A stretch of DNA of 34,160 bases from Candidatus Kapaibacterium sp. GTDB lineage: Bacteria; Bacteroidota; Ignavibacteria; Kapaibacteriales; UBA961. Positions 609-17,406 of the stretch are shown here, piece after piece (within the stretch, counting starts at the first letter, position 1; every line of letters begins with the position of its first letter). The stretch lies in the NCBI GenBank assembly GCA_017302855.1, contig JAFLBY010000015.1:1-34160 (forward strand), in the 5' to 3' direction. Both the position numbers and the translations under genes were made by a program. The notes below the pieces were generated by a model. That model was not told where the DNA came from and searched no databases. It saw nothing but the letters and a program-made list of their open reading frames with translations.

Positions 609-827
609 CAAAAATTGCACGCAATATGCTTTTCTTTTCTGATGAGAATCTTATTTTGGCTTCATCATTGATCAAACACAAAGATTAATGCAATAACATA
701 TAAAGATGATATTTGTAACATATTCTACGATCAAACTTTCAAGAAAACCTAGTCTTTGATACGTATTTTGGAACAATATTGCGTTTCGATGGTACATAGT
801 GTATGACGCATGAATGAAGGAACAACG

Positions 828-3800
828 ATGATTATTAGAACTCTTATCACATTACTTTTACTGCAATGGACTATATGTGTTGCGGCTGCACAAGTATTAG
901 TTACGGAAGTTTCTCCGGCAAATGGCACCATTCTCAATCGAAATCATTCTTCATCGGATTGGTTAGAATTGACAGCAATCTCGGCAAAAGTTAACCTTAA
1001 AGGTTGGAGAATTTCTGACAAAAACAATTTTGACAAAGCCTATATCTTACCCGATACCGTTTTGAATCAAGGGCAATCCACAATGGTATTTTGCACCGAA
1101 GACAAGAATACCCATCCCGTCACTACAGTAATCGGTGATGCAGCTTGGATTGGCAGATGGTCATCATGGGAACGTAACACCTTCGCATATATGCCCCTGT
1201 CCGGCGATTTTACCATGACAGTAAGAATCAACTCTCTTTACCATGACTCTGTTCCAACGGAAGCTGTACTCTTAATTCGTGATAATACTCTTGAAACATC
1301 ACGCTATATCGGAATCGCTGCTCTCAGTAATAAACACATGTATATACATCATAAAGCAAGCACAAATCCTAATGCTGATGGTTTACATTTTAAATTGCAT
1401 CCTTATCCGGCAGAAGTTAAATTTCCACAATGTTGGCTAAAACTGCAAAAAAAGGGTGACACAATTAGTCTTGCAGCCTCAGCTGACGGATATTATTGGG
1501 CAGAAGAACAATCGTTTTACTTTCCATTTCCGCAAAAAGATTTTTTTGCAGGTATTGCAATCGCACCAACAAATTATGTCTATAGTAAGGATATTCGACT
1601 ACACTATAGCGAGTTACGTATCAACGATAAAGAATATCTGCATGGTTTTCCTCATATAGCAAACATAAAAACAGATAAACCGGCATCACAAAATAAAAAC
1701 AAAGAAATTCACGCTCCATTTCAATTATCTGCTTCCCAAGAAAAGCTATATCTGTGGAATCCCGACGGTAAACTCATTGAAACTATGTCTTGGTCTGATA
1801 TTCCGGGCAATCGGACATGGGGACGCGATTCACTATTGCGCCAAGGGTTTTTATTTTACGCCACACCCGGTTTTAAAAATACCGGAACTGCTGATGGGAT
1901 ATGTACATTACCGGAGTTAAGTGAAAATTCGGGGATAAAAATCTCTCCTTTTACAACGGAATTATTACATTCTAAGGATGATATTATACGATTTACGACA
2001 AATAATGAAGTGCCTGATGAAACATCACCTATCTTACCCCATGATTCTACTTTGTATATTGACAAATCAATGACTATTCGCTTACGGAAATATAAAGAGA
2101 ATCACATTCCAAGCCAAGTTCAGACTTATACTTATATTTTTGAAGACAAAAAAGAATATCCGACCATTTTCCTTACAGCTCCCGATAAACTATGGTGGGG
2201 TGATTCCGTAGGTATTCTCTATGATTCGGCAGGCAAAACAAATGCTTACAACAATGTCGAAATACCTGTTTCTATTGAATACATTAAAAAAGACAAAAGG
2301 GAATTTTATGAAAATGCGGGATGTTCATTACGGGGAGTAACGGCGAGATCTCTACCTCAAAAATCCTTTGATATAGATTTTAAGAACAAATATGGTACAT
2401 CAAGTATTAAGGGTGATTTCTTACCAACATCATACAAAGAACATGAAAAATTGGTATTTCGTACCGGCAGCCAAGACTGGACACTAACTTCATATAGAAA
2501 CAATATCGCTTCTGTTCTTGCAGATAATTCAAAAATAGACAATCAAAAATTTCAACCTGTAAGAGTTTATGTAAATGGTCAATATATGGGTCATTATATG
2601 ATGGAAGAAAATTCAAGTGACGAGTTTATATCAAGCAATTTTAACATAGAAAAATCTAATATTGCACTTGTCGGTTCATCCGGCGAACCACAATATGGAT
2701 CATCTGTTTTATTTCAAAAATTATTAGATGACATAAGAAAAAGTTCTCCAACAAATGACTCAATGTATATATCTGTATCGAAACGAATTGACATTCCTGC
2801 ATTGATTAAATATATATCTTTACAAGTTTATATTGCAAATATTGACTTACCGTCTTCAAACATCAAATACTGGCGTGATACTACAAAAAATTCTCTGTGG
2901 CGACCATTATTTTTTGATGCTGATTATTCACAGGGATGCCTTATGGGTTATGATGGTGATGTACTCTCAAATATACTTAGTGCGAAGCAAACAAATCATA
3001 CAAACCATCCGGATAAAACAATATTATGGCGATATTTGTTTAGTAAACATGAATTCCAAAGTGCATATTTATTAGAATTATCTGATATATTGAACACTAC
3101 ATGCACTACAAAAAACCATATCCGTATTATTGATTCCTTAACGTCAATAGTCGAAAATGAAATGCAAGACCACAGAAAAAGGTGGCAAATGATTACAAGT
3201 GATTGGAACCACGAAGTACAACGCTTGCGTGAATTTGCGACAGTTAGAAAAGATATAGTTCGGCAACAAAGCATTGAGCGTTTTGGGCTTGGCGGAATAT
3301 GTTCTGTATCTGTTGCCGTTCACCCTCCCAATGCATCGGGAACGATTAAAGTAAGTAAAAGTATAGCAACCTCCCAAATGCAACAAGCCGTCTTTTTTCA
3401 AGATGTTCCTTTACCATTATCCATTACTGAACATCCGCAATGGAAATTCCTTCACTGGCGCATAGGGGATTCGATTATTTCCACAGATAAAAATGTGATA
3501 ATGTTACCGGATACAGTATCAATGAATATTATTGCCGAATTTGTACAAGATTCCACAACTATGGGTAATGCCATCCCTATTGTCATTAATGAAATTATGT
3601 ATAAAGCAGCCGAGAGTAAAGATATGAAAGACTGGATAGAATTAACAAATTATGGCAATGAGTCATATAATATCGGTTCATGGATTCTACGTGATAATGA
3701 CAATTCGCATTCATTTATTATTCCACCGAATACGATTATTAACCCTCAAGAATACATTATTATAGCAGAAGACACAACAAAATTTTTAGAATATTATCCA

Positions 3801-4316
3801 CGACCGACAAAAATTATCGGGGAATTTGATTTTGGTTTCGGACGTGGCGATCAAGTACGGCTTTTTAATGCAGAGAATTTGCTCATTGACAGTGTTCACT
3901 ATGGTATTATTTCTCCTTGGGACAGTAATGCCGATGGCACAGGACAATCATTGGAATTACAATCGCCTGTTTTGGATAATACTTTACCGGAACATTGGCA
4001 TGCAACAGGGAATAATGGTGGAACACCGGGCAGACCGAATACCCCGGGTTTATTTGTACAAGACATCGGAGATAATGCAAATATTTCAATTCACAGAAAC
4101 AATAATGTACTTGAAATTCATTGTACCGATACACCGCAAAAACTGCAATGTTCACTTTATTCTATTCATGGAAATCTACTGACACGTATTCACAATATTG
4201 GTACACAAACATCCATACCTTTAACAGGGCTTTCAAGCGGTATATACAATGTAATTATACAAGAAATAGCAACACTCCGAATTATTCATAGAAGTTCTTT
4301 TTCCATAATACAATAA
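828..4316 (+). CDS. T9SS-secreted CotH-kinase-like protein with two lamin-tail domains
   Basis: The start is placed at 828 (1162 residues) because AAGGA lies 6 bases upstream and the hydrophobic signal peptide begins at once. An in-frame ATG at 810 would add six polar residues. Order seen: signal peptide 1-21; a first lamin-tail-like domain about 22-95; a concanavalin/DUF1349-like stretch about 105-265; a chitobiase C-terminal-like module about 370-440; a CotH-like domain about 445-815 with YVNGQYMGHYMMEEN and FFDADYSQG, matching the conserved G-x-Y-x3-E and DxD kinase regions; a second lamin-tail domain about 915-1070 (INEIMY, DWIELTN); and about 75 C-terminal residues ending in LSSGIYNVII, typical of the T9SS sorting domain. 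CotH proteins phosphorylate extracellular proteins in sporulating Firmicutes. The substrate here is unknown. The gene converges with the next one, only 2 bases between stops. Confidence 0.82.
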   Translation: MIIRTLITLLLLQWTICVAAAQVLVTEVSPANGTILNRNHSSSDWLELTAISAKVNLKGWRISDKNNFDKAYILPDTVLNQGQSTMVFCTEDKNTHPVTTVIGDAAWIGRWSSWERNTFAYMPLSGDFTMTVRINSLYHDSVPTEAVLLIRDNTLETSRYIGIAALSNKHMYIHHKASTNPNADGLHFKLHPYPAEVKFPQCWLKLQKKGDTISLAASADGYYWAEEQSFYFPFPQKDFFAGIAIAPTNYVYSKDIRLHYSELRINDKEYLHGFPHIANIKTDKPASQNKNKEIHAPFQLSASQEKLYLWNPDGKLIETMSWSDIPGNRTWGRDSLLRQGFLFYATPGFKNTGTADGICTLPELSENSGIKISPFTTELLHSKDDIIRFTTNNEVPDETSPILPHDSTLYIDKSMTIRLRKYKENHIPSQVQTYTYIFEDKKEYPTIFLTAPDKLWWGDSVGILYDSAGKTNAYNNVEIPVSIEYIKKDKREFYENAGCSLRGVTARSLPQKSFDIDFKNKYGTSSIKGDFLPTSYKEHEKLVFRTGSQDWTLTSYRNNIASVLADNSKIDNQKFQPVRVYVNGQYMGHYMMEENSSDEFISSNFNIEKSNIALVGSSGEPQYGSSVLFQKLLDDIRKSSPTNDSMYISVSKRIDIPALIKYISLQVYIANIDLPSSNIKYWRDTTKNSLWRPLFFDADYSQGCLMGYDGDVLSNILSAKQTNHTNHPDKTILWRYLFSKHEFQSAYLLELSDILNTTCTTKNHIRIIDSLTSIVENEMQDHRKRWQMITSDWNHEVQRLREFATVRKDIVRQQSIERFGLGGICSVSVAVHPPNASGTIKVSKSIATSQMQQAVFFQDVPLPLSITEHPQWKFLHWRIGDSIISTDKNVIMLPDTVSMNIIAEFVQDSTTMGNAIPIVINEIMYKAAESKDMKDWIELTNYGNESYNIGSWILRDNDNSHSFIIPPNTIINPQEYIIIAEDTTKFLEYYPRPTKIIGEFDFGFGRGDQVRLFNAENLLIDSVHYGIISPWDSNADGTGQSLELQSPVLDNTLPEHWHATGNNGGTPGRPNTPGLFVQDIGDNANISIHRNNNVLEIHCTDTPQKLQCSLYSIHGNLLTRIHNIGTQTSIPLTGLSSGIYNVIIQEIATLRIIHRSSFSIIQ

Positions 4317-4318
4317 AC

Positions 4319-5569
4319 TCAAGGCGTACAATGCATTAAATAGAGGCGATTATTTATTCTGCCGATGGATTCATAACGACCATTAAAACGATTATAGCGC
4401 GGTGTGCTTGTTTGGTCAACCATAAGCCCCGCAAAAGCAGTATTTTTTTCTAAATTCAGCATTACCATTGCCACACCCGAAGAAAAGCACATTGTTTTAC
4501 TATAAGGTTTTACGCAATAAGGATTTGTTAAATCCATACCACGCTGAATAACATAGCGTTTTCCATTGATACTGATACCGAAATCTGTATCGAAAGTAAG
4601 AAAAAGTAATTCTTCGCCATTATAAGTAAACATGGGTTTACTTGTTTCCTTGCCTGCGGCATATTCGGTACTACTGAAAACTATTTTGGGAATTTGTTGC
4701 TGATTTATTGCATTAAATGCGTACACAGGAGCTAAAGGATGCAGAGTTAAATTTTCAATTGAAAGATATGATTGACTTTCTATCGGCTCATAATACTCAT
4801 CATTGAGCAAAACAGCCGTTGATGTTTGCCCTTGTTTTCCGACAAATGCCGCAATAGTACATTCTTGATTTATTGCAAACTGCGAAATCATATCATAATA
4901 ACGTGATTGAGGTTCATTTCCTAAATACACACGCCACTGCAAACCATTTGCCGCCACATACAATGGTCTGCCATCATGCCATATTCCAATAATTTTCACA
5001 TCATCGTATAAGGGTGTATCGCCTCGAGAAGTGACTATGACCTTGCCTCCCGACCGTTGTGAGACATACATATATGAATTACCATAACAATCAACAACAA
5101 TAGGACCGCTTCTTTGCAGCAATGCAATTTCCTGACCTTTCCATCGCATCATTTCCATAGTTCCTTGTGCATAGACAATGGCAGGATTACCATTACGACC
5201 ATAATAGACACCGCGCGGCTCGGTAGCAATGATTGGAATAACCGAATCTTTATAGACAATATTCCAAACACCATTCACATTTAAGCCGAAAGTAGCCCAC
5301 GATTCGCCATCAGGAGAAAAATTTGGCGTTTTTAACTCTTGATATACGTCAGTTTTTACGCCATCTACCCATAAACGCGTCTGATTTGAAAATGGTTGTG
5401 TCAATGCCCACCAATGACGTGTAGTATCAACTCCAAAGGAAACAACAGGCTCGCTTCCATCAAGTATAAGTGTTTCCCCGCATTTATTCGATGCTCCAAC
5501 AGGCGCAAATGCAAGGAGAAACGAAGCAATGCCGAATAATAATCGTAAAAGAATCTTAGTGCTGTTCAT
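4319..5569 (-). CDS. Secreted beta-propeller-like protein of unknown function
   Basis: The ATG at 5569 gives 416 residues beginning with a clear signal peptide (MNSTKILLRLLFGIASFLLA...). In-frame codons extend upstream to 5689 but would bury this signal sequence, so the shorter start is preferred. The mature part has repeated short beta segments and phrases such as NFSPDGESWATFG and TYNGEELLFLTFD that resemble PD40/TolB or WD40-like blades. No catalytic motif is recognised. Cysteines are few (KCGE near the mature N-terminus, NPYC and TMCF later). It ends 2 bases from the CotH-like gene on the other strand and is divergent from the glycan locus, with about 250 bases between start codons. The propeller call is inferred from pattern only, and I cannot name a family. 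Confidence 0.6.
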   Translation of the reverse strand: MNSTKILLRLLFGIASFLLAFAPVGASNKCGETLILDGSEPVVSFGVDTTRHWWALTQPFSNQTRLWVDGVKTDVYQELKTPNFSPDGESWATFGLNVNGVWNIVYKDSVIPIIATEPRGVYYGRNGNPAIVYAQGTMEMMRWKGQEIALLQRSGPIVVDCYGNSYMYVSQRSGGKVIVTSRGDTPLYDDVKIIGIWHDGRPLYVAANGLQWRVYLGNEPQSRYYDMISQFAINQECTIAAFVGKQGQTSTAVLLNDEYYEPIESQSYLSIENLTLHPLAPVYAFNAINQQQIPKIVFSSTEYAAGKETSKPMFTYNGEELLFLTFDTDFGISINGKRYVIQRGMDLTNPYCVKPYSKTMCFSSGVAMVMLNLEKNTAFAGLMVDQTSTPRYNRFNGRYESIGRINNRLYLMHCTP

Positions 5570-5817
5570 ATCTATATGTGCAAGAAAAAGGTTATATAAT
5601 TTCTGTACCCCAAATGCAACCGAAGAAACTATACACTGATTATTGTTGCATTCTGATTCAAAACTATGCAAAACAATGGTATATCCCAAAAGAATCGGGC
5701 AAGATTACACTCATAGATTACTTACATTTCCATGAATGGCATATCGTTTGCAACTATACCTCTATCACCTCTGTAATGGTGAATAATAACCATACGAACT
5801 AAAGATGGATAGAGATA

Positions 5818-8800
5818 ATGACTGTAAATCGAGGCAAACGTAATCCTATACGCTATGACGGTTCTACACCGGATGTGATACTGCGTCATGCCCGCAATGC
5901 TGTTCAAAGTAAAGATTTCTTTACTGCCTTTGATTTGTATGAACAACTTATGAGCATTGTGCCCCATCAATCCGTCGAGATACTCAGCGAATTATATGAT
6001 GTGTATCAGTCATTACCTGATACAACTTCTCGTTATTGGCTCTATCAAGGCAGACATTTTAACTTTGGCATTGAACCCCACGAAAAAGTACTTGATATTG
6101 GCAGCGGAAATATACCTTTTCCTTTTGCTACCCATCTTGCTGATCTTGCCGTAACAGATGATATGTATGGAAGAGCAGGAGTTCCGTTTAAGTATCTTGA
6201 TGGCAAACCTGTTTATGAATGTGATGTCGAGAATATGCCCTTTGCCGATAAAGAATTCGATTTTGTCTATTGTTCTCATGTTCTTGAACACACACATAAT
6301 CCCGAAAAAGCCTGTAAAGAATTAATGAGAATTGCAAAAAGAGGATATATAGAAACACCGACACGAGGAAAAGATTTATTCCTTCATACAGGAAAAGTAT
6401 CGAATCATATCTATTTTGTTCAAAATATTGATGGAACATTAATATTCACAGAATATACTCCGGAAGAATTACAAGGATTAGACAATGATATTTTATTGCA
6501 AATGCATGTTAATCCGCAAACACAACGTGAGAAAGCATTTTCCGCATTAATTTATCTCAAATCACATCTGATAAATACAATGCTGTATTGGGAACATGAG
6601 TTTACGGTCGAAGTACGAAAACGCAGCAATAATAATACACTGAAGAGTAGTGCTGTAACTCACCAGCCACATACTATACAAACAGAAAAAGAGAATGATG
6701 TATATGCACTTATTCTTCATCTTTATTATCCCGCATTTTTAGAAAAACATTATAAACAATTTCCGAATCTCTCCAATGCTCCTATTGAAATTCAAAAAGA
6801 TTCACTTATTGCATCTCGATTCGGCGACAGTGATTTTTATTCCAAAAATTTACATTCGCATGGTTGGAAAACGCAAGATTTAATTCTCAATGCCGCACCA
6901 ATACAAGCATTATGGGCACAAGCACATCATATACATACGACTTCAGGATTGGAAATTAGCATTGCACAAATACGAGCAGAAAAACCATCTGTTGTCTATT
7001 TCCACGATATATCAATTGCCACAAAAGAATATATTGAAGCAATACGCCCCTATGTTAGATTAATTGTAGGTCAAATTGCTTGTCCTTTATTTGAAGGGAC
7101 GTATTATCATGGCTTTGATATTCTCATTTCCTCCTTACCGCATTTTGTTGAAAGATTTCGTGCAATGGGAATAAAATCATATTATCAACCCTTAGCATTT
7201 GAATCATCACTGTTTACGGATATTATACCATATCATTCTCGTCCTGTCACATGCAGTTTTGTGGGAGGAATTTCGCCCATACACACGAACTCATTACGTT
7301 TATTAGAACTATTGGCAACAACAACGGACTGTGAATTTTGGGGCTATGGAGCAGAATCATTACCTCCTACCTCCCCCATTCGTGCAAAACACCACGGTGA
7401 AGTTTGGGGAATGGATATGTTTATGACTTTACAACAATCGAAAATAACGGTCAATAGACATGGAGCATTTGCTGAGGATTATGCCAATAATATGCGATTA
7501 TTTGAAGCAACAGGGTGTGGTGCTTTGCTTATTACTGACCACAAAAGTAATATTGAAGATTTATTTGTCATAGGAAAAGAAATAATTACTTATTCCACAC
7601 CGGAAGAATGTGCTGAATATGTTCGCTATTATTCCTCGCATCCCGAAGAAGCAGAAATTATTGCCGAAGCAGGAAGACAAAGAACATTACGTGATCACAG
7701 TTACCATTTGCGTATGAATAAAACATCGCAATGGTTAAAGCGACATCTTCGTTATCAATCTGAGGACTTTTCCGCAGTCAATATCCCTATTTCTCAAGTT
7801 TCTTCGGGTCACACTTTCATTGATACAAAAGATTTAGATGATTCATTACTCAATGGATGGAAAAATCCTGATATCCCGCTTAGACAAAGAGCACTTGTCC
7901 ATAATGAATTACAAGAATTATATAAAGGTTCCCCATCAAGAGTTTATAGTATTGCCGCTGAATCAATGCGATATCATCTTAAAAACGGCTCTTCATTATT
8001 GGAAATAGGCTGTTCAAGCGGCTATTATTCCGAAGTGTTGGAATATGTACTTGGTAAGACTTTTCAGTATTCGGGCATAGACATTTCTGAATCATTTATT
8101 GCTATGGCAAAAGACTATTATCCAGAATGCTCTTTTACTGTAGCTGATGCAAAAAATTTACCTTTTCCTAAGGCATCATTCGATATTGTCTTTTCATCCG
8201 GTGCAATATTATATGAAATTGATTATGGGAAACATGTCCAAGAAACAAGTCGTGTAGCCCGAAACGTTCTCATTTATCACAGAACACCGATTTGCAAAAA
8301 AACAAGCACCCAATTATTAAAGAAAAAAGCATATAATGTTGAAACAGTAGAACGAATATTTAATGAACAAGAATTTCTGTCACTTATTATATCTGAAGGA
8401 TGGCATCTCGAATCATCATTAGTAATCAGTGAAGATTTTTCGCATGACTATTATGACATTACATATACATTTGTTCGAAAATCAGACGACATTATCCACA
8501 AAAAAGAACTTACTCCAGCAAAGGCAATAACAATGACACTTGAAGGAACTCCCCCATTTTCTGCAACGACACAGCCGGAAGATATTTTACGTGATAAAGC
8601 AGTTCAGTTAATGAACAATGCCGTACAATATATGCAGCAAAATAATCACGAATCCGCCTTATCTGAATTAGATGAAGCCATCATACATTATCCGCAAATT
8701 CCTAATTTACAATATCTGCGTTCATTATGTTTATGGAAAACGGGTAAAATGAGCGAGGCATTTATAGCGATGTTTGGTGAATTAAAAGTAGCACCCCATA

Positions 8801-9627
8801 ATGAACAAGTCCTTTATACTGCTTCAATGGCTTCACGAGCAATACAGCCGTATATTGATTCATCATCCGCATATATTCAGAATATAAAACAACAGATAGA
8901 AATGTTGCGTAAGTTTGAGTTTAAGATATTTTCGCAAAGCGGTGAAGATGGTACTTTAATGGGAATTTTATCACGTGTCGGTACAACGAACAAAAAATTC
9001 ATGGAAATAGGTATTGGCAATGGTGATGAATGTAATACTGCCAATTTATCCATAAATCATGGATGGTCAGGTTTTCTTGTGGATGGTGATGATCAGCAAG
9101 TCCGCAATGCACGTCATTTTTACAGACATTGCCCACAAGTCCGTGTTGAACAATGTTTCGTCACAACAGATAATATCAATGAATTATTAATTTCCCATCG
9201 TGTCACAGGAGAAATTGATGTCATGTCATTAGATATTGACGGCAATGATTATTGGATTTTAGAAAAATTAAATGTATTGCATCCGCGTGTCGTTATTTTG
9301 GAATATAATCCTACTTTTGGTCCTGAGCGTTCTGTGACTGTTCCTTATGATCCTGAATTTTATCGTATGAACTATCATAAAAGCGGCTATTATCACGGTG
9401 CATCGCTATCCGCATTAGCAAAATTAATGTCATCACGGGGCTATATACTTATTGGCTGTGATTCAAATGGATATAATTCATTTTTTGTACGCAAAGATGT
9501 CGCAGAAGGTATTTTTATCGAAGTACCGCCACAAATGGCATATTATCCGGCAAAACCACGTTTCAGACATGGTTCACCGGAAGTGCAATTTGCCGTAATA
9601 AAAGAATTACCATTAATTGAGGTATAA
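5818..9627 (+). CDS. Four-enzyme fusion: methyltransferase - CgeB-like glycosyltransferase - methyltransferase - TPR - FkbM-like methyltransferase
   Basis: This single 1269-residue frame shows four enzyme modules. Residues 15-66 look like a TPR pair. About 75-270 is a class I SAM methyltransferase (motif I VLDIGSGNIP at 91-100, HVLEH at 154-158). About 295-640 resembles CgeB/GT-B glycosyltransferases (HGEVWGMDMF near 526, EATGCGALLITD at 563-574). About 690-890 is a second methyltransferase (LLEIGCSSGYYSEV at 727-740). About 925-1000 is TPR-like. About 1038-1235 is a third methyltransferase of the FkbM/Methyltransf_21 kind (FMEIGIGNGDE from 1061, LDIDGNDYWI at 1138-1147). The likely role is building and O-methylating a surface or protein-linked glycan in the cytoplasm. 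It opens a six-gene glycan run and the cupin gene follows after 5 bases. Domain classes are confident. Substrates and the exact third-methyltransferase family are inference. Confidence 0.85.
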   Translation: MTVNRGKRNPIRYDGSTPDVILRHARNAVQSKDFFTAFDLYEQLMSIVPHQSVEILSELYDVYQSLPDTTSRYWLYQGRHFNFGIEPHEKVLDIGSGNIPFPFATHLADLAVTDDMYGRAGVPFKYLDGKPVYECDVENMPFADKEFDFVYCSHVLEHTHNPEKACKELMRIAKRGYIETPTRGKDLFLHTGKVSNHIYFVQNIDGTLIFTEYTPEELQGLDNDILLQMHVNPQTQREKAFSALIYLKSHLINTMLYWEHEFTVEVRKRSNNNTLKSSAVTHQPHTIQTEKENDVYALILHLYYPAFLEKHYKQFPNLSNAPIEIQKDSLIASRFGDSDFYSKNLHSHGWKTQDLILNAAPIQALWAQAHHIHTTSGLEISIAQIRAEKPSVVYFHDISIATKEYIEAIRPYVRLIVGQIACPLFEGTYYHGFDILISSLPHFVERFRAMGIKSYYQPLAFESSLFTDIIPYHSRPVTCSFVGGISPIHTNSLRLLELLATTTDCEFWGYGAESLPPTSPIRAKHHGEVWGMDMFMTLQQSKITVNRHGAFAEDYANNMRLFEATGCGALLITDHKSNIEDLFVIGKEIITYSTPEECAEYVRYYSSHPEEAEIIAEAGRQRTLRDHSYHLRMNKTSQWLKRHLRYQSEDFSAVNIPISQVSSGHTFIDTKDLDDSLLNGWKNPDIPLRQRALVHNELQELYKGSPSRVYSIAAESMRYHLKNGSSLLEIGCSSGYYSEVLEYVLGKTFQYSGIDISESFIAMAKDYYPECSFTVADAKNLPFPKASFDIVFSSGAILYEIDYGKHVQETSRVARNVLIYHRTPICKKTSTQLLKKKAYNVETVERIFNEQEFLSLIISEGWHLESSLVISEDFSHDYYDITYTFVRKSDDIIHKKELTPAKAITMTLEGTPPFSATTQPEDILRDKAVQLMNNAVQYMQQNNHESALSELDEAIIHYPQIPNLQYLRSLCLWKTGKMSEAFIAMFGELKVAPHNEQVLYTASMASRAIQPYIDSSSAYIQNIKQQIEMLRKFEFKIFSQSGEDGTLMGILSRVGTTNKKFMEIGIGNGDECNTANLSINHGWSGFLVDGDDQQVRNARHFYRHCPQVRVEQCFVTTDNINELLISHRVTGEIDVMSLDIDGNDYWILEKLNVLHPRVVILEYNPTFGPERSVTVPYDPEFYRMNYHKSGYYHGASLSALAKLMSSRGYILIGCDSNGYNSFFVRKDVAEGIFIEVPPQMAYYPAKPRFRHGSPEVQFAVIKELPLIEV

Positions 9628-9632
9628 TCATC

Positions 9633-10061
9633 ATGAGCGCAGAACGCATTGAACATAATGGCATTCGTTATGCCGAAGTAATTAGAGCAGATGTAAAAGT
9701 CTCCCATACAATATTCTATTCTCCGCCCGAATCATCATTTCAATTCGGTTTATTGGCGCATGATGCAGGATTTATTGAACCACCGCATTATCATAAACCA
9801 TTCAAAAGAGAAATTGTGGATTTACAACAAATGTTTGTGGTTCAAAGAGGCATCGTTGCTGTGGAACTTTATACGGATGACGGAGAATTATTACGAGAAA
9901 TTACTTTATATGCCGGTGATGGTATTGTCCTTATTCATGGCGTTCACGCTATACGCGTCATTGAAGATATGCAATGTATCAGTGTTAAACAAGGGCCATA
10001 TTTGGGTATCGAAAATGATAAAATATTTGTAGAGGCAAAAAAAAATGATTCCGGTATTTGA
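9633..10061 (+). CDS. Small single-domain cupin protein of the glycan locus
   Basis: This 142-residue protein has a cupin fold signature: PHYHKPFKRE (His52, His54, then Glu60) for motif 1 and a second motif around GDGIVLIHGVHAI (His102, His105). The central VVQRGIVAVELYTDDGE gives the usual beta-barrel strands. Small cupins in nucleotide-sugar clusters act as epimerases, ketoisomerases or metal-dependent sugar-modifying enzymes. The exact reaction cannot be read here. A GAGG lies before the ATG. The 3' end overlaps the aminotransferase start by 17 bases, so the two are very likely translated together and may act on the same sugar intermediate. Confidence 0.7.
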   Translation: MSAERIEHNGIRYAEVIRADVKVSHTIFYSPPESSFQFGLLAHDAGFIEPPHYHKPFKREIVDLQQMFVVQRGIVAVELYTDDGELLREITLYAGDGIVLIHGVHAIRVIEDMQCISVKQGPYLGIENDKIFVEAKKNDSGI

Positions 10062-11151
10062 ACCTATTATAGGTGAAGAAGAAATTGCCTATGTCACTGA
10101 TGCACTTCGCAAAGGAGAAATATCAGGTTCTTTCGGCGGTTATATTCCTGAGTTTGAAAAACAATTTGCGGATTTTTGTGGTGTGAAACATGGTATTGCC
10201 GTTTCGAGCGGTACAACAGCTTTACATCTTGCAGTACAAGCTGCCGGTATTGGTCGTGGAGATGAAGTCTTGGTCAGTGCCTCCACAAATATTGCAACAG
10301 GTTTAGCTGCTTATCATAATGGTGCTGTTCCGATAGCGATAGACTCAGAACCCATCACGTGGAATATTGACCTTGACAAAATTGAGGAAAATATTACACC
10401 ACAAACAAAAGCAATTATTCCCGTTCATTTATTTGGTCACCCCGTTGATATGGATGCACTCATGGACATTGCAAAAAAATATTCTCTCACGGTAATTGAA
10501 GACTGTGCGGAATCTCATGGGGCAACAGTGCGAGGGAAAATGACAGGTTCCTTTGGTGATATGGGTTGTTTTAGTTTTTATGCCAATAAAATTATTACGA
10601 CAGGCGAAGGCGGAATGATTGTCACCGATAATGATATACTGGCAGAAAAATTACGATTATTACGTAATCTTGCATTTACAAAGCCACGTTTTTATCATGA
10701 ATTACCCGGACATAATTTTCGTATGACAGGGTATCAAGCGGCAATGGGTATAGCACAACTTAAAAAAATCAATCAATTTATTGAGGACAAACGAAGAATT
10801 AGTGCAGAATATACACAACAATTATCAACAATACCGTATATTCAAACACCCGCAGAAATGTCTTGGGCTAAAAATGTCTATTGGATGTATGCAATTGTCT
10901 TGAGAAATCATCCAACAGTGACAAGAGATATGCTTGTATCATACCTCCAAGAAAAAGGAATTGAAACCCGAACATTTTTTTGTCCTATGAATATACAACC
11001 TTGTTTTTATGATAGTGAAGGGTGGCGGCATATTCCCTGCCCTATTGCTGAGAATCTATGGCAAACGGGATTATATTTACCCTCCGGATGTACTTTAACA
11101 ATAGAACAAATTACCTATATTTCTTCGATGATAAAGGAGTGTTTGTCATGA
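10045..11151 (+). CDS. DegT/DnrJ/EryC1/StrS-family sugar aminotransferase (perosamine-synthase-like)
   Basis: The 368 residues match PLP-dependent sugar aminotransferases over the full usual length. Visible landmarks are SSGTTALHLAVQAAG (54-68), the PLP-pyridine aspartate in IEDCAESHGA (Asp153), and the Schiff-base lysine in FYANKIITTGEGGM (Lys182). The family transfers an amino group from glutamate to a keto-sugar nucleotide. The ITTGEGGM neighbourhood and overall spacing resemble GDP-perosamine synthases, but the nucleotide and sugar cannot be fixed from sequence alone. It overlaps the cupin gene by 17 bases upstream and the methyltransferase gene by an ATGA junction downstream, showing operon coupling. 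It supplies an amino sugar for the neighbouring glycosyltransferases. Confidence 0.88.
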   Translation: MIPVFEPIIGEEEIAYVTDALRKGEISGSFGGYIPEFEKQFADFCGVKHGIAVSSGTTALHLAVQAAGIGRGDEVLVSASTNIATGLAAYHNGAVPIAIDSEPITWNIDLDKIEENITPQTKAIIPVHLFGHPVDMDALMDIAKKYSLTVIEDCAESHGATVRGKMTGSFGDMGCFSFYANKIITTGEGGMIVTDNDILAEKLRLLRNLAFTKPRFYHELPGHNFRMTGYQAAMGIAQLKKINQFIEDKRRISAEYTQQLSTIPYIQTPAEMSWAKNVYWMYAIVLRNHPTVTRDMLVSYLQEKGIETRTFFCPMNIQPCFYDSEGWRHIPCPIAENLWQTGLYLPSGCTLTIEQITYISSMIKECLS

Positions 11152-11921
11152 TTTCTTATATTGGACGACATGCTGCACTCTATGATATTTTTTATCAGGA
11201 TAAGAATTATAAAAAAGAATCTGAATTTATTCATGAGTATTTTTGTCATAATGGGCATGGGAATGCTCTGTTTGAAGCAGCATGTGGTACAGGAAATCAT
11301 GCTTTCGAGTTTGAAAAATTAGGGTATATTGTCACAGCAATAGACAATTCACCCGATATGATACAAGAAGCTGAAAGAAAGAAATTAGAAAAGAAATCGA
11401 ATGTATCCTTCTCTCTTGCATCAATGAGTGAATTAGATACAGATAAATTCCATAACTATGATTATGCTATCTGCCTTTTTGATTCTTTGGGATATGTATT
11501 GACAAATGATAATATTAAAAATACTTTGTGTAATATATATTCTTTACTGAATCCCGACGGTATTTTCTGCTGTGAAGTATGGCATTCTGCGGCGATGCTT
11601 AAAGGATATTCCCCTGTTCGCTATAAACAATGGAATATTGGCGATACAGAGCTGATACGCATTTCTGAAACTTCACTCGACACAATATCATCCGCGGCAA
11701 AAATTGACTTTACTATTCTTGAACTACATAAAAATGGTTCATATACTAAAATACAAGAGACACAGAACAATCGTTTTTTTTCTGTCAATGAGATAACATA
11801 TTTTCTTACTGAAGCCGGATTTACTGATATTTCTATTTTTGACAGTTTTACTCAGGACACACATATTAACGACCAAACATGGCATTTACTCTGTTTTGGT
11901 CATAAAAAAAACACCAAATGA
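11148..11921 (+). CDS. Class I SAM-dependent methyltransferase
   Basis: The start is placed at 11148 because AAAGGAG lies about 8 bases upstream and the ATGA overlap with the aminotransferase stop is typical of coupled genes. A longer in-frame start at 11058 would lie inside the preceding gene without such a site. The protein is 257 residues. Motif I is FEAACGTGNHA (42-52), followed by VTAIDNSPDMI (62-72) as the SAM-ribose acidic loop and YAICLFDSLGYV (106-117) as the motif IV region. The C-terminal half (ISETSLDTISS, FFSVNEITYFLTEAGF) matches small-molecule or sugar methyltransferases. It probably methylates a nucleotide sugar or glycan residue in this locus. The acceptor atom is unknown. 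Confidence 0.82.
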   Translation: MISYIGRHAALYDIFYQDKNYKKESEFIHEYFCHNGHGNALFEAACGTGNHAFEFEKLGYIVTAIDNSPDMIQEAERKKLEKKSNVSFSLASMSELDTDKFHNYDYAICLFDSLGYVLTNDNIKNTLCNIYSLLNPDGIFCCEVWHSAAMLKGYSPVRYKQWNIGDTELIRISETSLDTISSAAKIDFTILELHKNGSYTKIQETQNNRFFSVNEITYFLTEAGFTDISIFDSFTQDTHINDQTWHLLCFGHKKNTK

Positions 11922-11932
11922 GGAGCAATAGA

Positions 11933-13156
11933 ATGACAATAGGATTTTTTGCAAGTTTTAATGAAACAGCAGGTGGTGTATTTCAATATGCTGTTTCTAT
12001 GTTTAGAGCATTATCGCAACGCAAGGAAAAATTTATAGCGATTCTTGCTCCTCATAGTCCATTATCGGCATATATTCCTAAGCATTGGGACATTATCGAA
12101 TATCCTCAACATTTGTGGACTACCAATGAACATCGTCAAGGAAAAATAAGCGGAGATGGTTTTGATTTAACAGAAAACGGCATAAACCGAGGTGCATATA
12201 ACTTTTTCAAAAAACATAATATTGACTTACTTCTCTTTGCTGCACCTGAGCTTATTTCCTTTGAAAGCGGTATTCCCTATATTATGCCTTTTCATGACTT
12301 ACAGCATCGAATACAACCACATTTCCCGGAAGTATCTGCATTAGGGACATGGCAATGGCGTGAATATTTATTCCGCAATGGTGCAAAATATGCTCATGGT
12401 ATTCTTGTGGACTCCGAAACAGGTAAAGAGGATGTTCTTCACTATTATGGTGATAAAATTACAGCGGATAAACTATTTATCCTTCCTTTGCCGCCGGCAT
12501 ATACCACAGTAAGTACAAAAAAATTTAATCGCGATAATTTTCTCAAAAAATATACTTTACCGGAAAAGTTCTTTTTCTATCCTGCGCAATTCTGGATGCA
12601 TAAAAATCATGCACGATTATTTCATGCTTTACATATCGCACGATTTCGTCATGGTATAGATATGCCCATTGCACTTGTCGGTTCTCGAACAGGGGGAGAA
12701 GCCGAAGCTCGTGAAAGAATACATTATTTAGCGATGTATGTAGCAGAACAATTTGCAGTACAAGACCTCACTCGTTATTTGGGATATGTTCCCGATGAAG
12801 ATATGCCGCATTTATATAAAGAATCATGCGGATTAATTATGCCAACAATGTTTGGACCGACAAATACTCCCGTTTCTGAGGCATGGAGCTTGGGTTGTCC
12901 CGTTATTAGTTCAGATATTCGTGGTATTCGCGAACATATTGGTGATGCAGGGGCTTTGGTAAATCCTAATTCTGCCGAAAATATCGCAGAGGTAATGATT
13001 CAACTTTGGACAGATGATGCCATAAGACAGCAGCTTATTACAAAAGGAAAGCAAAGGATTAGTGAATATAATCCATCACATTTTTCTGTACTGCTGAACA
13101 ATGCGATTGATAGTGTTATGCCAACATTAAAGGAAAAAAGTGATTTTTTTCTCTAA
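11933..13156 (+). CDS. GT-B glycosyltransferase (family 4-like)
   Basis: The start at 11933 is preferred to the in-frame ATG at 11918 because GAGGAG (11920-11925) sits 7 bases before it, and the protein then begins with the Rossmann strand MTIGFFASFNETAGGVFQ. It has 407 residues. The N-terminal acceptor domain spans about 1-195. The donor-binding domain spans about 205-390, with FYPAQFWMHKNHARLF (214-229), ALVGSR (247-252), YLGYVPDEDMPHLY (282-295) and PTMFGPTNTPVSEAWSLG (304-321). In the usual E-x7-E motif the second glutamate is present (Glu316) and the first position is glycine, as in MFGPTN-type members. It probably transfers a sugar from a nucleotide donor during assembly of the locus glycan. 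Confidence 0.85.
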   Translation: MTIGFFASFNETAGGVFQYAVSMFRALSQRKEKFIAILAPHSPLSAYIPKHWDIIEYPQHLWTTNEHRQGKISGDGFDLTENGINRGAYNFFKKHNIDLLLFAAPELISFESGIPYIMPFHDLQHRIQPHFPEVSALGTWQWREYLFRNGAKYAHGILVDSETGKEDVLHYYGDKITADKLFILPLPPAYTTVSTKKFNRDNFLKKYTLPEKFFFYPAQFWMHKNHARLFHALHIARFRHGIDMPIALVGSRTGGEAEARERIHYLAMYVAEQFAVQDLTRYLGYVPDEDMPHLYKESCGLIMPTMFGPTNTPVSEAWSLGCPVISSDIRGIREHIGDAGALVNPNSAENIAEVMIQLWTDDAIRQQLITKGKQRISEYNPSHFSVLLNNAIDSVMPTLKEKSDFFL

Positions 13157-13164
13157 AGGAGAGT

Positions 13165-16100
13165 TTGCATTCACCAATCAAATTCTCCGAAATTAATAAT
13201 ATTTCAACCGGTTCACACGATAAAATTATTATAGCAACGACAATTGCACCTTTTGATATAGAAAAACAAAAAAAAGCAGTGCAGTCGTGGATTTCATTAG
13301 GATTTCATGTCGTTTCGCTTAACTCGAAAGAAGAAATTGAGTCTCTATCGGCACATTTTCCAATGATTACCTTTTATGAATGCAATAAAACGGCAATTGA
13401 TATTTGCGGTAAACCACTTCAGTTCTTTGATAATTTTCTTCATTATTTTCGAGATACCGACACAAAAATATGTGCTATTGTAAATTCTGATGTCATATTA
13501 AGAACAGACAATACTTTTCTTTCCTTTATTCGTGAGAACGTAAAAGATTCTTTTCTCTTTGGTAGCCGTTTGGATGTTGTAGATGCACATTCGGAACATG
13601 GAATAATGTACAAAAACGGTTATGATTACTTCTTCTTTGACCAATCTCTCATTTCTTGCTATCCTGCAACAGATTATGCGTTGGGCGCACCATGGTGGGA
13701 TTATTGGGCAGTATTTTGTCCATTAAATTGTGGACGTTCCGTAAAACAAATTCTCTCCCCTATTGCCATTCATATTCAGCACCCGATGAACTATAATATG
13801 AAGCTATGGTTTCACTATGGCTCATTATTTTCAGAGTATGTACGCAACAATACACGGATATTTGTTAATGAGTTTTCAACTATTTTCCAAGAAGGTGAAC
13901 AGGAGGGAATTAATGCTCTTATTTCCAATATTTCCATAATATCAAATAAACTCATTCATGCGCTTTCACAAAAAATTCTTATAGATATTCCGGCTATAAC
14001 ACAACAAACAACCGATACTTATAAAGTAAGTGCCATTGTGTCGCTCTATAATGCGGAAAAATTTATTGCGGGATGTTTAGAGAATCTTATCAATCAAACA
14101 CTCTACAAAAAAAATCAACTTGAAATTATTATTATTAATAGCAATTCTCCTCAAAATGAAGAAATAATTATTCAAGAATATAGAGAAAAGTATCAACATA
14201 TACGATATATAAAAACGGAGCAAAGAGAAACGGTCTATCAAGCATGGAATCGTGGCATCGCAATGGCTCAAGGACAATATATTACGAATGCTAATGCTGA
14301 TGACCGCCACAGAATTGATGGTTTAGAAATTTTGTCCCGAGCTTTGGATTGTATTCCCGATATTGGTATTGTCTATGCAGATTCCTTTGTCACTTCGGTA
14401 GAAAATCAAACATTTGATAATTGCACGCCCCATTTACGCTATTCTTTACCCGATTTTAATCTTGGTACACAATTATCCAGCAGTTGTTTCGGAGCACAAC
14501 CCATGTGGCGTAAATCAGTTCATACTACAATTGGATTATTTTCTTCTGAGTGGTCTATTGCAGGTGATTATGACTTTTTTATTCATGTCGCTTGGAAATA
14601 TAAAGCTGCTCATATTCAAGAAACGCTTGGTTTATTTTTATCCAGAAATGATAGTGTCAGCGGATATGATAATGCACAAAAAACAATTCAAGAAACTCTC
14701 AATATTCTACGGAAATATCGTACAAATATTCCATTGGAAGATTTATATCCTGCATTACTTCACGATTCTACACCTTTGGCAAGAATGTCAGCATTGTGGG
14801 ATATGGGTAATCTTTGTGCTTTAAGTCCATACAGAGATTATGAACTAGCTCTTGAATTTTATCAAAAAGCTATTGATATTGATGGATTAACGCAACAAGA
14901 AGAAAATGCAATTCAAAAAGGATTAGCAAATAATGCCGGAGTGATAGCTTTTTGTATGAATAACTTCGATCAAGGTCTATCTTTATTGCAAGCGGCTTTA
15001 CCCTCAATCGAAGCACAATCGAATATAGAATTGGTTAAAAAATCTTTGGAACATGGAACACGCCTGTATGCGCTTCATTTTCGCATGACGCAGTTCAATC
15101 ATCCGGTTATACTGCAAGCACGTATGGCAAAGGGAATTCGATTAAATGAATGTGGAAATTTTGAATATTCGGATGATCATCAACAAGTTTTCTGGGATGG
15201 ATATATCGGTATGGATGGTGTACCAGTCACTGATGAAGAAATTCTGACAGCAAAAAAATTATTACCAAGAGTTTCCACATTTATTCCGGAAAATACTATT
15301 CCGACTCCCGCATCAAAAAAAAAGATTCTGATGACAATGTATGGATGGAATGAAGAAGGCGGCGGCACACAATTACCGCGTGCTATTGCTTTTGCCCTTG
15401 CCGAACAGGGTTATGAAGTCCATGTTATGTACGCTGCTGCTTATACCGATTCTTCACTACCTTCCTATTCCGTTGTACGTCAGAAAGATGGCAATATTTC
15501 TCTATATGGAATATTCAATCGCGCTACTGTATTTTATGACCTGCAAAATCCACAAAGAGAAATAGCCGATGCTAAAGTGCAAGCAATTTTCCAAAATCTC
15601 TTGGACGAAATTTCACCGGATATTATTCATTTTCACAATTTTCTCGGTTTATCATTGGCAATCGTAGCAACTGCACGAAATCAATCTATACCATATATTT
15701 TTACTCCACATAATTATTGGACTTTATGCCCGCGTTTGTATCTTCTTAACAAAGATGGCGCTCAATGCTCCGGACCTTCATCCGATGGAAAAAAATGCGC
15801 ACAATGTGTTGATAATAGCGATGAATACAGTCATTATTCTTCACGTCTTTCTCACGCAATTACTTTATTTTCAGATTCCGGCAACAGGACAATTCCTCCA
15901 TCACATCGTACAAAGCAATTACTTGTAGAACATGGATTTACTCATGACACTATCACAGTAATACACCAAGCATCTCCCATCACTGAACAATTATGGCATA
16001 GTGTCGGAAAAGTAAGAAAGAATGGCAATACATCAGAAAAACTCTCTATTCTCTATTGCGGTGCTTTACTGCCAATAAAAGGAGTCCATATTCTTGCGCA

Positions 16101-16602
16101 AGCAGTGCAGTATTTATCTCCTGATGCTATTTCTGTGAATATTTACGGAGGCGGCTCACAAGAGTATATTCGCTATCTGCAATCATTGGATACAAACCAT
16201 ATTCTACATTTTCATGGTAAATATTCTCTCAATGATTTACCGAATATTTTGAAGCAAGCAGATATTATGGTAGCACCCTCATTATGCGAAGAGACAGGCG
16301 GACTTATTTTGACAGAAGCATTAGCGGCGCGTGTACCCGTGATTGCTTCAGCTATTGGAGGTTACACTGATTTTATTCATAATGATAGTAATGGCTATCT
16401 ATTTACGCCGGGTTCATCACAAGAATTATACAATATTTTGCAATTATTAGTGTCAGATAGATCAAAATTACACTCATTACTACAAAAAATGGGTGCGCCG
16501 CGTCTATTTTCCGACTATATTAACGATATAACTGTTCTTTATTCACAATTAATACAATCTCATAACAATGAAAGAAAAAGTTCATATACAAATATTGGAT
16601 AA
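13165..16602 (+). CDS. Three-module glycosyltransferase fusion (GT-A-like - GT2 - TPR - GT4)
   Basis: This 1145-residue frame appears to start at TTG (13165), just after AAAGGAG at 13155-13161. No ATG occurs for about 65 codons. Residues 20-270 form an unfamiliar domain with AIVNSDVIL (105-112), suggestive of a GT-A fold. Residues 287-520 are a GT2 domain (VSAIVSLYNAEKF, then ITNANADDRHR with Asp379/Asp380 in the DxD position). About 555-640 is TPR-like. Residues 718-1112 are a GT4 domain (GWNEEGGGTQLPRA, FTPHNYWTLCPR, and EETGGLILTE with Glu1043/Glu1051 as E-x7-E). A cysteine group, CPRL..CSGP..KKCAQC (855-881), resembles the metal-like insert of some GT4 enzymes. The gene follows the previous stop by 8 bases and overlaps the OsmC gene by 35 bases. 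It probably adds consecutive sugars to one glycan. Confidence 0.83.
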   Translation: MHSPIKFSEINNISTGSHDKIIIATTIAPFDIEKQKKAVQSWISLGFHVVSLNSKEEIESLSAHFPMITFYECNKTAIDICGKPLQFFDNFLHYFRDTDTKICAIVNSDVILRTDNTFLSFIRENVKDSFLFGSRLDVVDAHSEHGIMYKNGYDYFFFDQSLISCYPATDYALGAPWWDYWAVFCPLNCGRSVKQILSPIAIHIQHPMNYNMKLWFHYGSLFSEYVRNNTRIFVNEFSTIFQEGEQEGINALISNISIISNKLIHALSQKILIDIPAITQQTTDTYKVSAIVSLYNAEKFIAGCLENLINQTLYKKNQLEIIIINSNSPQNEEIIIQEYREKYQHIRYIKTEQRETVYQAWNRGIAMAQGQYITNANADDRHRIDGLEILSRALDCIPDIGIVYADSFVTSVENQTFDNCTPHLRYSLPDFNLGTQLSSSCFGAQPMWRKSVHTTIGLFSSEWSIAGDYDFFIHVAWKYKAAHIQETLGLFLSRNDSVSGYDNAQKTIQETLNILRKYRTNIPLEDLYPALLHDSTPLARMSALWDMGNLCALSPYRDYELALEFYQKAIDIDGLTQQEENAIQKGLANNAGVIAFCMNNFDQGLSLLQAALPSIEAQSNIELVKKSLEHGTRLYALHFRMTQFNHPVILQARMAKGIRLNECGNFEYSDDHQQVFWDGYIGMDGVPVTDEEILTAKKLLPRVSTFIPENTIPTPASKKKILMTMYGWNEEGGGTQLPRAIAFALAEQGYEVHVMYAAAYTDSSLPSYSVVRQKDGNISLYGIFNRATVFYDLQNPQREIADAKVQAIFQNLLDEISPDIIHFHNFLGLSLAIVATARNQSIPYIFTPHNYWTLCPRLYLLNKDGAQCSGPSSDGKKCAQCVDNSDEYSHYSSRLSHAITLFSDSGNRTIPPSHRTKQLLVEHGFTHDTITVIHQASPITEQLWHSVGKVRKNGNTSEKLSILYCGALLPIKGVHILAQAVQYLSPDAISVNIYGGGSQEYIRYLQSLDTNHILHFHGKYSLNDLPNILKQADIMVAPSLCEETGGLILTEALAARVPVIASAIGGYTDFIHNDSNGYLFTPGSSQELYNILQLLVSDRSKLHSLLQKMGAPRLFSDYINDITVLYSQLIQSHNNERKSSYTNIG

Positions 16603-16972
16603 ATATCGCTGTTCCTCACAGGCAAGACAGCATATTGTCTATGCCGATGAGCCACAAGAACTTGGCGGAACAGATACTGCACAATCACCCAATGAATTAT
16701 TACTTTCTGCACTTGGTTCTTGCACCGCAATTACCTTAACAATGTATGCAGAAAGAAAAGGTTGGATTTTTTCTCTATTAACTATTGATCTTTCGATGGA
16801 ATCAGAACATAGTACAAATGGTAAAATCTCAAGAATCGAAAGAGTTATTCATTGCGAAGGAAATTTCGGTCATGAGGAAAAAGAACGTTTACTTCATATA
16901 GCAAAACAATGTCCGGTGGCAAAAATACTTACCGGCACAGTCACAATCACAACAACATTATCGGAGTCATAA
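16568..16972 (+). CDS. OsmC/Ohr-family peroxide-reducing protein
   Basis: The 134-residue length is normal for the family. The two redox cysteines are in place: Cys52 in ALGSCTAITLTMYAERKGW and Cys115 in AKQCPVAKIL. SPNELLLSALGSC is the signature segment. OsmC/Ohr proteins reduce organic hydroperoxides through the Cys pair, usually with a dithiol partner. The long-helix pattern and absence of Ohr-specific blocks favour the OsmC/YhfA side. The start lies 35 bases inside the preceding glycosyltransferase gene and the stop overlaps the next ATG by one base, so it is co-transcribed with both despite an unrelated job. Confidence 0.88.
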   Translation: MKEKVHIQILDKYRCSSQARQHIVYADEPQELGGTDTAQSPNELLLSALGSCTAITLTMYAERKGWIFSLLTIDLSMESEHSTNGKISRIERVIHCEGNFGHEEKERLLHIAKQCPVAKILTGTVTITTTLSES

Positions 16973-17406
16973 TGAAAAATATCACAAAAAAATATGATAA
17001 TGGTGAAATTACCGTTATCTGGCAACCCGCAATGTGCAGCCATTCCGCTAAATGTTTTCACGGCTTACCATCGGTGTTTGATCCGAGAAAAAAACCGTGG
17101 GTAACTCCCGAAGGCGGCTCAACGGAAGAAATAATTCGACAAGTTGAGCAATGTCCTTCCGGTGCTTTATCATATATAAGAAATGATGGGAATGTAATAG
17201 AAGAAAAATCAGAGAGTATTGAATCCGAAACAATTATCGAGCCATTACCAAATGGTCCACTTTTAGTCTATGGTACTGTTCATATTCGTCATGGTGACAA
17301 TGAACCGATAATAAAACATAAAGTAACAGCATTTTGTCGTTGCGGGGCTTCTTCCAATAAACCATTTTGCGATGGAACACATACAAAAATCGGTTTTCAT
17401 GGATAA
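16972..17406 (+). CDS. Dual iron-sulfur protein: Fer4_19 (YjdI-type) plus CDGSH domain
   Basis: The start is the ATG at 16972 (144 residues), coupled by TAATG to the OsmC stop and preceded by CGGAG. A longer in-frame start at 16909 lies inside the OsmC gene. Residues 1-70 form a divergent mono-cluster ferredoxin domain with Cys22, Cys28 and Cys61 (AMCSHSAKCFHG, EQCPSGAL). Residues 118-142 are a CDGSH domain with the full three-Cys-one-His set: Cys122, Cys124, Cys133, His137 (CRCGASSNKPFCDGTH). CDGSH proteins hold a 2Fe-2S cluster, as in mitoNEET, with redox or cluster-transfer roles. The two-domain order is known for this family. Pairing with OsmC suggests a redox or peroxide-stress function. 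The gene ends the plus-strand run and is followed by a terminator. Confidence 0.87.
   Translation: MKNITKKYDNGEITVIWQPAMCSHSAKCFHGLPSVFDPRKKPWVTPEGGSTEEIIRQVEQCPSGALSYIRNDGNVIEEKSESIESETIIEPLPNGPLLVYGTVHIRHGDNEPIIKHKVTAFCRCGASSNKPFCDGTHTKIGFHG

What the first reader, a model, noticed from the sequence alone, without database searches (positions are those of the whole stretch)
5818..9627. One polypeptide with three methyltransferases and a glycosyltransferase
Four complete enzyme signatures lie in one uninterrupted 1269-residue frame, with TPR-like spacers. The three methyltransferase modules are of different subtypes. Such a chain could elongate and methylate a glycan processively. I know of no described enzyme with exactly this order.
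Basis: partly seen in the sequence, partly recalled or inferred. Interest (0 to 1): 0.72.

Follow-up and report, generated by a model that had tools for sequence, protein, structure and literature searches.

The report
Three methyltransferases fused to a glycosyltransferase
An uncultured Ignavibacteria-type bacterium encodes one 1269-residue protein that joins a predicted sugar-transferring domain to three predicted methyl-transferring domains; it is likely a single machine that adds a sugar to a surface glycan and methylates it, and relatives of its parts lie close together as separate genes in other bacteria and in phages.

Summary
In detail: 5818-9627 is one open frame of 1269 codons with a methyltransferase (MT1), a CgeB-type glycosyltransferase (PF13524, GT-B fold), a second methyltransferase (MT2), a TPR-like helical stretch and an FkbM-type methyltransferase. 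It is not an assembly artefact: six listed proteins share the whole architecture at 68-98% identity. The catalytic modules evolve under purifying selection and keep their motif positions. GT-MT2 is the widespread core (fused in 191 of 192 GT-bearing sequences compared, a biased sample); MT1 comes and goes; the TPR-FkbM tail marks one 10-protein clade. A WbuC-like cupin gene follows directly and occurs in exactly the 4 of 99 related genomes with the FkbM-fused form. Elsewhere the parts are nearby separate genes (Rhizobium, Azospirillum, Sinorhizobium plasmids; phage contigs). Likely function: transfer of a sugar and several O-methylations of it in the cytoplasm, more likely on a protein glycan such as flagellin's than on an exported polymer, though the evidence on that point is mixed. 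Processive elongation is not supported: one GT domain. MT-plus-GT enzymes are known (WsaE, Klebsiella O7 ORF6), so this is a new variant of a known kind. No activity was tested.

The parts
5818..9627 (+). the whole fusion gene, 1269 aa: N-terminal helices, MT1, GT, MT2, TPR-like helices, FkbM
5818..6003 (+). residues 1-62, N-terminal helices (TPR-like by shape only)
   Evidence: model helices 18-30, 34-47, 49-64
6004..6642 (+). residues 63-275, MT1, MetW/Methyltransf_23-like, with shortened nucleotide-binding region
   Evidence: own gene with 57% identity in Azospirillum
6706..7761 (+). residues 297-648, CgeB-type GT-B glycosyltransferase domain
7888..8487 (+). residues 691-890, MT2, class I methyltransferase with E729/G735/D755 kept
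8560..8883 (+). residues 915-1022, TPR-like helical stretch
   Evidence: (below cut-off); TPR and FkbM modules alone together in P0192
8884..9597 (+). residues 1023-1260, FkbM-type methyltransferase
9633..10061 (+). WbuC-like cupin (25 bits, cut-off 42), 5 bases after the fusion gene; occurs in 4 of 99 related genomes, the 4 with the FkbM-fused form
10045..11151 (+). DegT/DnrJ/EryC1 nucleotide-sugar aminotransferase, nearest to LegC and PseC models but under their cut-offs
11058..11921 (+). separate class I methyltransferase
11918..13156 (+). GT4-type glycosyltransferase
13165..16602 (+). 1145-aa protein with a GT2 and a GT4 domain; first 280 residues match no Pfam family

Best explanation
The gene encodes one chain in which a CgeB-type glycosyltransferase domain is joined to three methyltransferase domains, and it likely works in the cytoplasm as a glycan-finishing enzyme: the GT domain would transfer one sugar to a growing glycan, MT2 would O-methylate that sugar at once, and MT1 and the FkbM domain would add further methyl groups to it or to its neighbours. 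Shown by calls: the fusion, its conservation, the kept motif positions, and the recurrent linkage of the parts in other genomes. Inferred: every activity, their order, and the substrate. The acceptor is more likely a protein-bound surface glycan such as that of flagellin than an exported polysaccharide; the aminotransferase two genes on suggests an amino-deoxy sugar, and the cupin likely acts on the same product. GT-MT2 is the functional core; MT1 and TPR-FkbM are add-on modules that hold further tailoring steps at the same site.
For: Architecture in P0001-P0006 and L005. Purifying selection on the catalytic modules. GT-MT2 fused in 191 of 192 GT-bearing sequences. Motif positions kept: D93/G95/G97/D109/E138 of MT1 in at least 95% of 41 relatives, E729/G735/D755 of MT2 and E563 of GT in all 46 rows, E1063/D1139/D1141/G1142 of FkbM in all 55 rows. 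GT fold of GT4 type; MT2 matches D-glucose O-methyltransferase 6uv6 (E 0.0016) and RebM 3bus by sequence (identity of RebM as a sugar O-methyltransferase is recalled). Parts as nearby separate genes: Rhizobium GT and MT2, Azospirillum MT1 and GT-MT2, Sinorhizobium MT1-like and FkbM-like, phage contigs MT1-like/GT/MT2. For a protein acceptor: no flippase, polymerase or ligase in the cluster, 0 of 9 genomes with Wzt_C, flagellin in 5 of 5 core carriers against 57 of 99 genomes, the phage setting, and flagellin islands of Enterobacteriaceae with GT-MT fusions, DegT and FkbM genes (PMC4875605 passages).
Confidence: 0.55

Rival explanations
1. It finishes an exported polysaccharide: the methyl groups cap the chain end, as in WsaE, WbdD and Klebsiella O7 ORF6, and an exporter then moves the product.
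For: Relatives of the modules lie in clusters with Wzm/Wzt exporters bearing a Wzt_C domain in Azospirillum TSH58, A. thermophilum and Sinorhizobium B11; capping by methyl groups with such exporters is described in PMC2943079 and PMC11231755 (passages); the carriers have Wzx-type and Wzy_C genes elsewhere.
Against: 0 of 9 genomes of the window's lineage have Wzt_C; no flippase, polymerase or ligase domain was found in the cluster; the phage copies sit between head and tail genes. In Azospirillum TSH58 the exporter is about 23 kb from the GT-MT2 gene.
Confidence: 0.27
2. Only GT and MT2 are active; MT1 and/or FkbM are decayed or structural modules.
For: MT1 needs 25 changes of state on the core tree and lacks the usual helix after its first strand; P0010 has K in place of the invariant motif I acid of FkbM.
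Against: MT1 and FkbM are the best-kept modules against L006 (85% and 83% identity; GT 65%, MT2 58%), and their motif positions are kept.
Confidence: 0.1
3. The chain is a convenience fusion for joint expression; the modules act on unrelated substrates.
For: Linkers are poorly kept (18% and 42% identity to L006) and module content varies widely in the family.
Against: The same modules recur together as separate genes in other phyla and in phages, and GT-MT2 stays fused.
Confidence: 0.08

Closest known systems
WsaE of Geobacillus stearothermophilus (PMC2943079, passages)
   Same: One chain with an N-terminal methyltransferase and glycosyltransferase modules, acting on a surface glycan
   Different: WsaE has two rhamnosyltransferase modules and one methyltransferase; here one CgeB-type GT and three methyltransferases. 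No sequence comparison with WsaE was made.
Klebsiella pneumoniae O7 ORF6 (PMC11231755, passages)
   Same: Methyltransferase and glycosyltransferase modules in one chain, shown biochemically there
   Different: It has a kinase, a coiled coil and two GT2 modules; here neither kinase nor coiled coil was found by Pfam
C. difficile type B flagellin GT2 (PMC5207246, passages)
   Same: GT plus PF08241 methyltransferase in one chain, proposed to add and methylate rhamnose on flagellin
   Different: PF00535 GT, one methyltransferase, gene downstream of fliC
MT1-GT-MT2 proteins of other phyla, e.g. P0011 (Pelotalea chapellei) and P0044 (Nitrospira sp. KM1)
   Same: Same three modules in the same order; 51% identity over 70% and 47% over 67% of the chain
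   Different: No TPR-FkbM tail; P0011 has extra N-terminal sequence matching MT modules weakly. No function known for them here.
GT41-type glycosyltransferases with methyltransferase domains in enterobacterial flagellin glycosylation islands (PMC4875605, passages)
   Same: GT-MT fusions in clusters that may also hold DegT aminotransferases and FkbM methyltransferases
   Different: Different GT family by the paper's label; islands lie between fliC and fliA, the window's cluster does not lie by a flagellin gene

Membership tests
PF13524 (CgeB-type glycosyltransferase) | match over the curated cut-off | tested here: met
   111.1 bits, cut-off 25
FkbM methyltransferase (PF05050) | match over the curated cut-off | tested here: met
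   25.2 bits, cut-off 22.7, a narrow margin; 1676 homologues of the module, many without a PF05050 label in the 120 listed
TPR protein | match over the curated cut-off of a TPR family | tested here: not met
   best 18.5 bits against 32.7; helices in the models make it TPR-like in shape only
WsaE / O7 ORF6 polymerase-terminator type | methyltransferase and glycosyltransferase in one chain | tested here: met
WsaE / O7 ORF6 polymerase-terminator type | two or more GT modules in the chain | tested here: not met
   one GT region in Pfam and in the listed architectures
WsaE / O7 ORF6 polymerase-terminator type | ABC exporter whose ATPase bears a carbohydrate-binding C-terminal domain | tested here: not met
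   Wzt_C in 0 of 9 genomes of the lineage, control rings in 2 of 14; met for some plasmid relatives of the modules
WsaE / O7 ORF6 polymerase-terminator type | methylation ends chain growth | not testable with these tools
   needs glycan analysis
Flagellin glycosylation island | GT-MT fusion, DegT-type aminotransferase and FkbM together, flagellin in the genome | tested here: met
Flagellin glycosylation island | location beside flagellin genes | tested here: not met
   flagellin hits of carriers lie on other contigs
WbuC cupin (for 9633-10061) | match over the TIGR04366 cut-off | tested here: not met
   25 bits, cut-off 42: WbuC-like, not filed as WbuC

The most novel reading that the evidence does not exclude
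A one-chain glycan-finishing line: one sugar transfer and three methylations by four active sites in fixed order on one polypeptide, with a dedicated cupin partner, making a multiply methylated cap sugar on flagellin or another surface protein; the same MT-GT-MT set has been taken up by tailed phages as a cassette between head and tail genes to decorate virions.
Probability: 0.3. Interest if true: 0.65.

Novelty: new variant of a known kind. Interest (0 to 1): 0.42.

Why it matters
Nature offers here the same catalytic modules fused and split, so that one can test whether putting sugar transfer and O-methylation on one chain changes product or rate. It also points to a GT-MT2 core, found in bacteria of several phyla and in phages, for which I found no described substrate (searches gave no paper on a PF13524 or CgeB fusion with a methyltransferase in the held library), and to a cupin that travels with the FkbM-fused form and gives a handle on its function.

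Tried and rejected
Assembly artefact: rejected, because the fusion recurs in six listed proteins and in an independently deposited MAG.

Processive polymerase: not supported, one GT domain.

Phage origin of the window's gene: no match in 50,697 phage records; IMG/VR contigs carry only split and distant relatives.

Wzt-linked terminator in this organism: not favoured, 0 of 9 genomes with PF14524, though relatives of the modules elsewhere lie with such exporters.

Flagellin link by adjacency: not found. In Azospirillum no flagellin is annotated in the stretches read of TSH58_p06, about 118 of 200 kb (the gene table is incomplete). The presence link (5 of 5 against 57 of 99) is weak: 4 of the 5 carriers are from one family.

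Nonulosonic acid as donor: NeuB in 4 of 9 genomes, among them 4 of the 5 core carriers but not G004, so not required.

Distribution: 3 of 395 genomes of a phylum sample (E <= 1e-60) and 5 of 391 of a class sample (E <= 1e-50) match the core, so it is rare here; no donor lineage was identified and transfer was not tested.

Module trees (congruence of MT1 with the core) were not built.

Literature: searches. Of PMC2943079, PMC5207246, PMC11231755, PMC4875605 and PMC5109656 I saw passages found by term; of the rest, WbdD (PMC3482155) included, only the search listing and the start of the abstract. Most subscription papers are not held.

Limits of counts: the homologue tables list 120 of 327, 120 of 1574 (only 7988 candidates scored) and 120 of 1676 matches, and 191 of 192 is biased, as top scores favour proteins with both domains. 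The 192 include the query, P0001 and P0121, a 99% identical fragment that is not an independent case. The tree has 189 rows: P0001 and P0121 were dropped and P0073 has no MT2. It is a FastTree tree, with 98 of 186 inner branches starred. A1 holds 45 and A2 54 listed homologues, picked by architecture and length. Foldseek does not show aligned ranges, so its methyltransferase hits for residues 1-915 cannot be given to MT1 or MT2; the sequence search does that.

Full report

Is it real. A MAG named Ignavibacteria bacterium UBA2373 holds a 99% identical copy and another MAG a 69% copy cut at its contig end. P0001-P0006 share the whole architecture at 68-98% identity. Between the window and UBA2373, Ka/Ks is 0.10 for MT1, 0.12 for GT, 0.22 for MT2 and 0 for FkbM. 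Against the 69% copy, MT1 and FkbM are best kept (85% and 83%), TPR and GT 65%, MT2 58%, linkers 18% and 42%; synonymous sites are largely saturated there.

How it is built. Among 192 GT-bearing sequences (the query and listed homologues), 191 also carry MT2, directly after GT; the lists favour such proteins. In the tree of 189 cores, 42 rows have MT1, and its presence needs 25 changes; 10 rows have FkbM and form one clade with one change, 6 of them with MT1 and 4 sisters without. The nearest rows outside that clade, P0146 and P0049, have the core without MT1, so the tail may have been joined before MT1, but loss of MT1 is not excluded. P0073 joins FkbM and GT in another order, and P0192 has TPR and FkbM modules without GT. 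Some other listed proteins join the core to radical SAM, GT2, GT47 or epimerase domains by their precomputed Pfam labels.

The parts as separate genes. On a Rhizobium plasmid GT and MT2 are two overlapping genes (44% and 42% identity), after a methyltransferase gene only weakly like MT1 (28%, E 6e-5). On an Azospirillum plasmid an MT1 gene (57% identity, other strand) lies about 4 kb from a GT-MT2 gene with a further methyltransferase, with an epimerase and a DegT gene between them; a Wzt_C exporter lies about 23 kb away. On a Sinorhizobium plasmid an MT1-like (34%) and an FkbM-like gene (35%) lie on either side of a Wzm/Wzt exporter, but the GT-MT2 core was not found on that record. In G469 GT and MT2 are neighbours. 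In the IMG/VR contigs L047 and L051, MT1-like, GT and MT2 stretches follow each other; in L048 a methyltransferase gene, GT and MT2 do; in L049 they are spread over about 7 kb and weaker. L047 and L048 are phage by head, portal or tape measure proteins; L049 and L051 were not tested. A GT47-type gene follows in L047, L048 and L051. The repeated linkage is the best evidence that the modules serve one product.

Surroundings. From 5818 to 17406 the genes overlap or lie at most 8 bases apart: fusion, cupin, LegC/PseC-like aminotransferase, methyltransferase, GT4, GT2/GT4, OsmC, CDGSH protein. The cupin is found in 4 of 99 related genomes, the same 4 that carry the FkbM-fused form, each time directly beside it; G065, which has MT1-GT-MT2 in a broken frame and no FkbM, lacks it. 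In G004, fusion (without MT1) and cupin stand without the other sugar genes. All 99 genomes but four thus lack both.

How it likely works. The GT domain would transfer a sugar, MT2 would methylate it, and MT1 and FkbM would add methyl groups elsewhere on it or on neighbours. That the acceptor is a protein glycan is a judgement. For it: no flippase, polymerase or ligase domain in the cluster, no Wzt_C in 9 genomes, flagellin in 5 of 5 core carriers against 57 of 99, a phage setting in which lipid-linked export is hard to picture, and the make-up of enterobacterial flagellin islands. Against it: no flagellin gene lies on the fusion's contig, Wzx-type and Wzy_C genes are present in the carriers, and plasmid relatives of the modules lie with polysaccharide exporters. 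I give the main statement 0.55 and the exported-polymer rival 0.27.

What is known. MT and GT in one chain is described for WsaE, Klebsiella O7 ORF6, C. difficile type B GT2 and GT41-type proteins of flagellin islands. None of the passages I read describes PF13524 with three methyltransferases, and the searches found no such paper in the held library. Hence a new variant of a known kind.

Noticed in passing
L047 (8001-13041), L048 (6973-11700), also L049 and L051: IMG/VR contigs carry relatives of the GT and MT2 modules (35-40% and 26-40% identity), with a methyltransferase before and a GT47-type gene after them; in L047 and L048 they lie beside portal, head or tape measure genes, so a phage glycan cassette is likely.
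   Followed up: partly
L047 4857-5978: Phage gene with collagen repeats (PF01391) and a weak carbohydrate-binding module match, a few genes before the MT/GT set: a possible target of its glycan.
   Followed up: no
9633-10061: WbuC-like cupin, 81-100% identical among 4 genomes and absent from 95 of 99 related ones; better kept than GT and MT2 of its neighbour.
   Followed up: partly
13165-16602: Second multi-domain protein of the cluster (GT2 and GT4 domains), with 280 N-terminal residues that match no Pfam family.
   Followed up: no
810-4316: CotH kinase protein with lamin-tail domains and a weak type IX secretion tail next to the cluster; 82% identical in UBA2373, where the sugar genes are 98-100%.
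   Followed up: no
4319-5689: 456-aa protein on the opposite strand just upstream of the fusion, no Pfam or NCBIfam match, 99% identical in UBA2373.
   Followed up: no
L029 8699-11619: In G065 (70% complete MAG) the MT1-GT-MT2 gene is split inside the GT domain, by decay or assembly error; pieces were only compared apart.
   Followed up: partly
P0010: FkbM module of this relative has K where the other aligned rows have the motif I acid, so it may be inactive.
   Followed up: no
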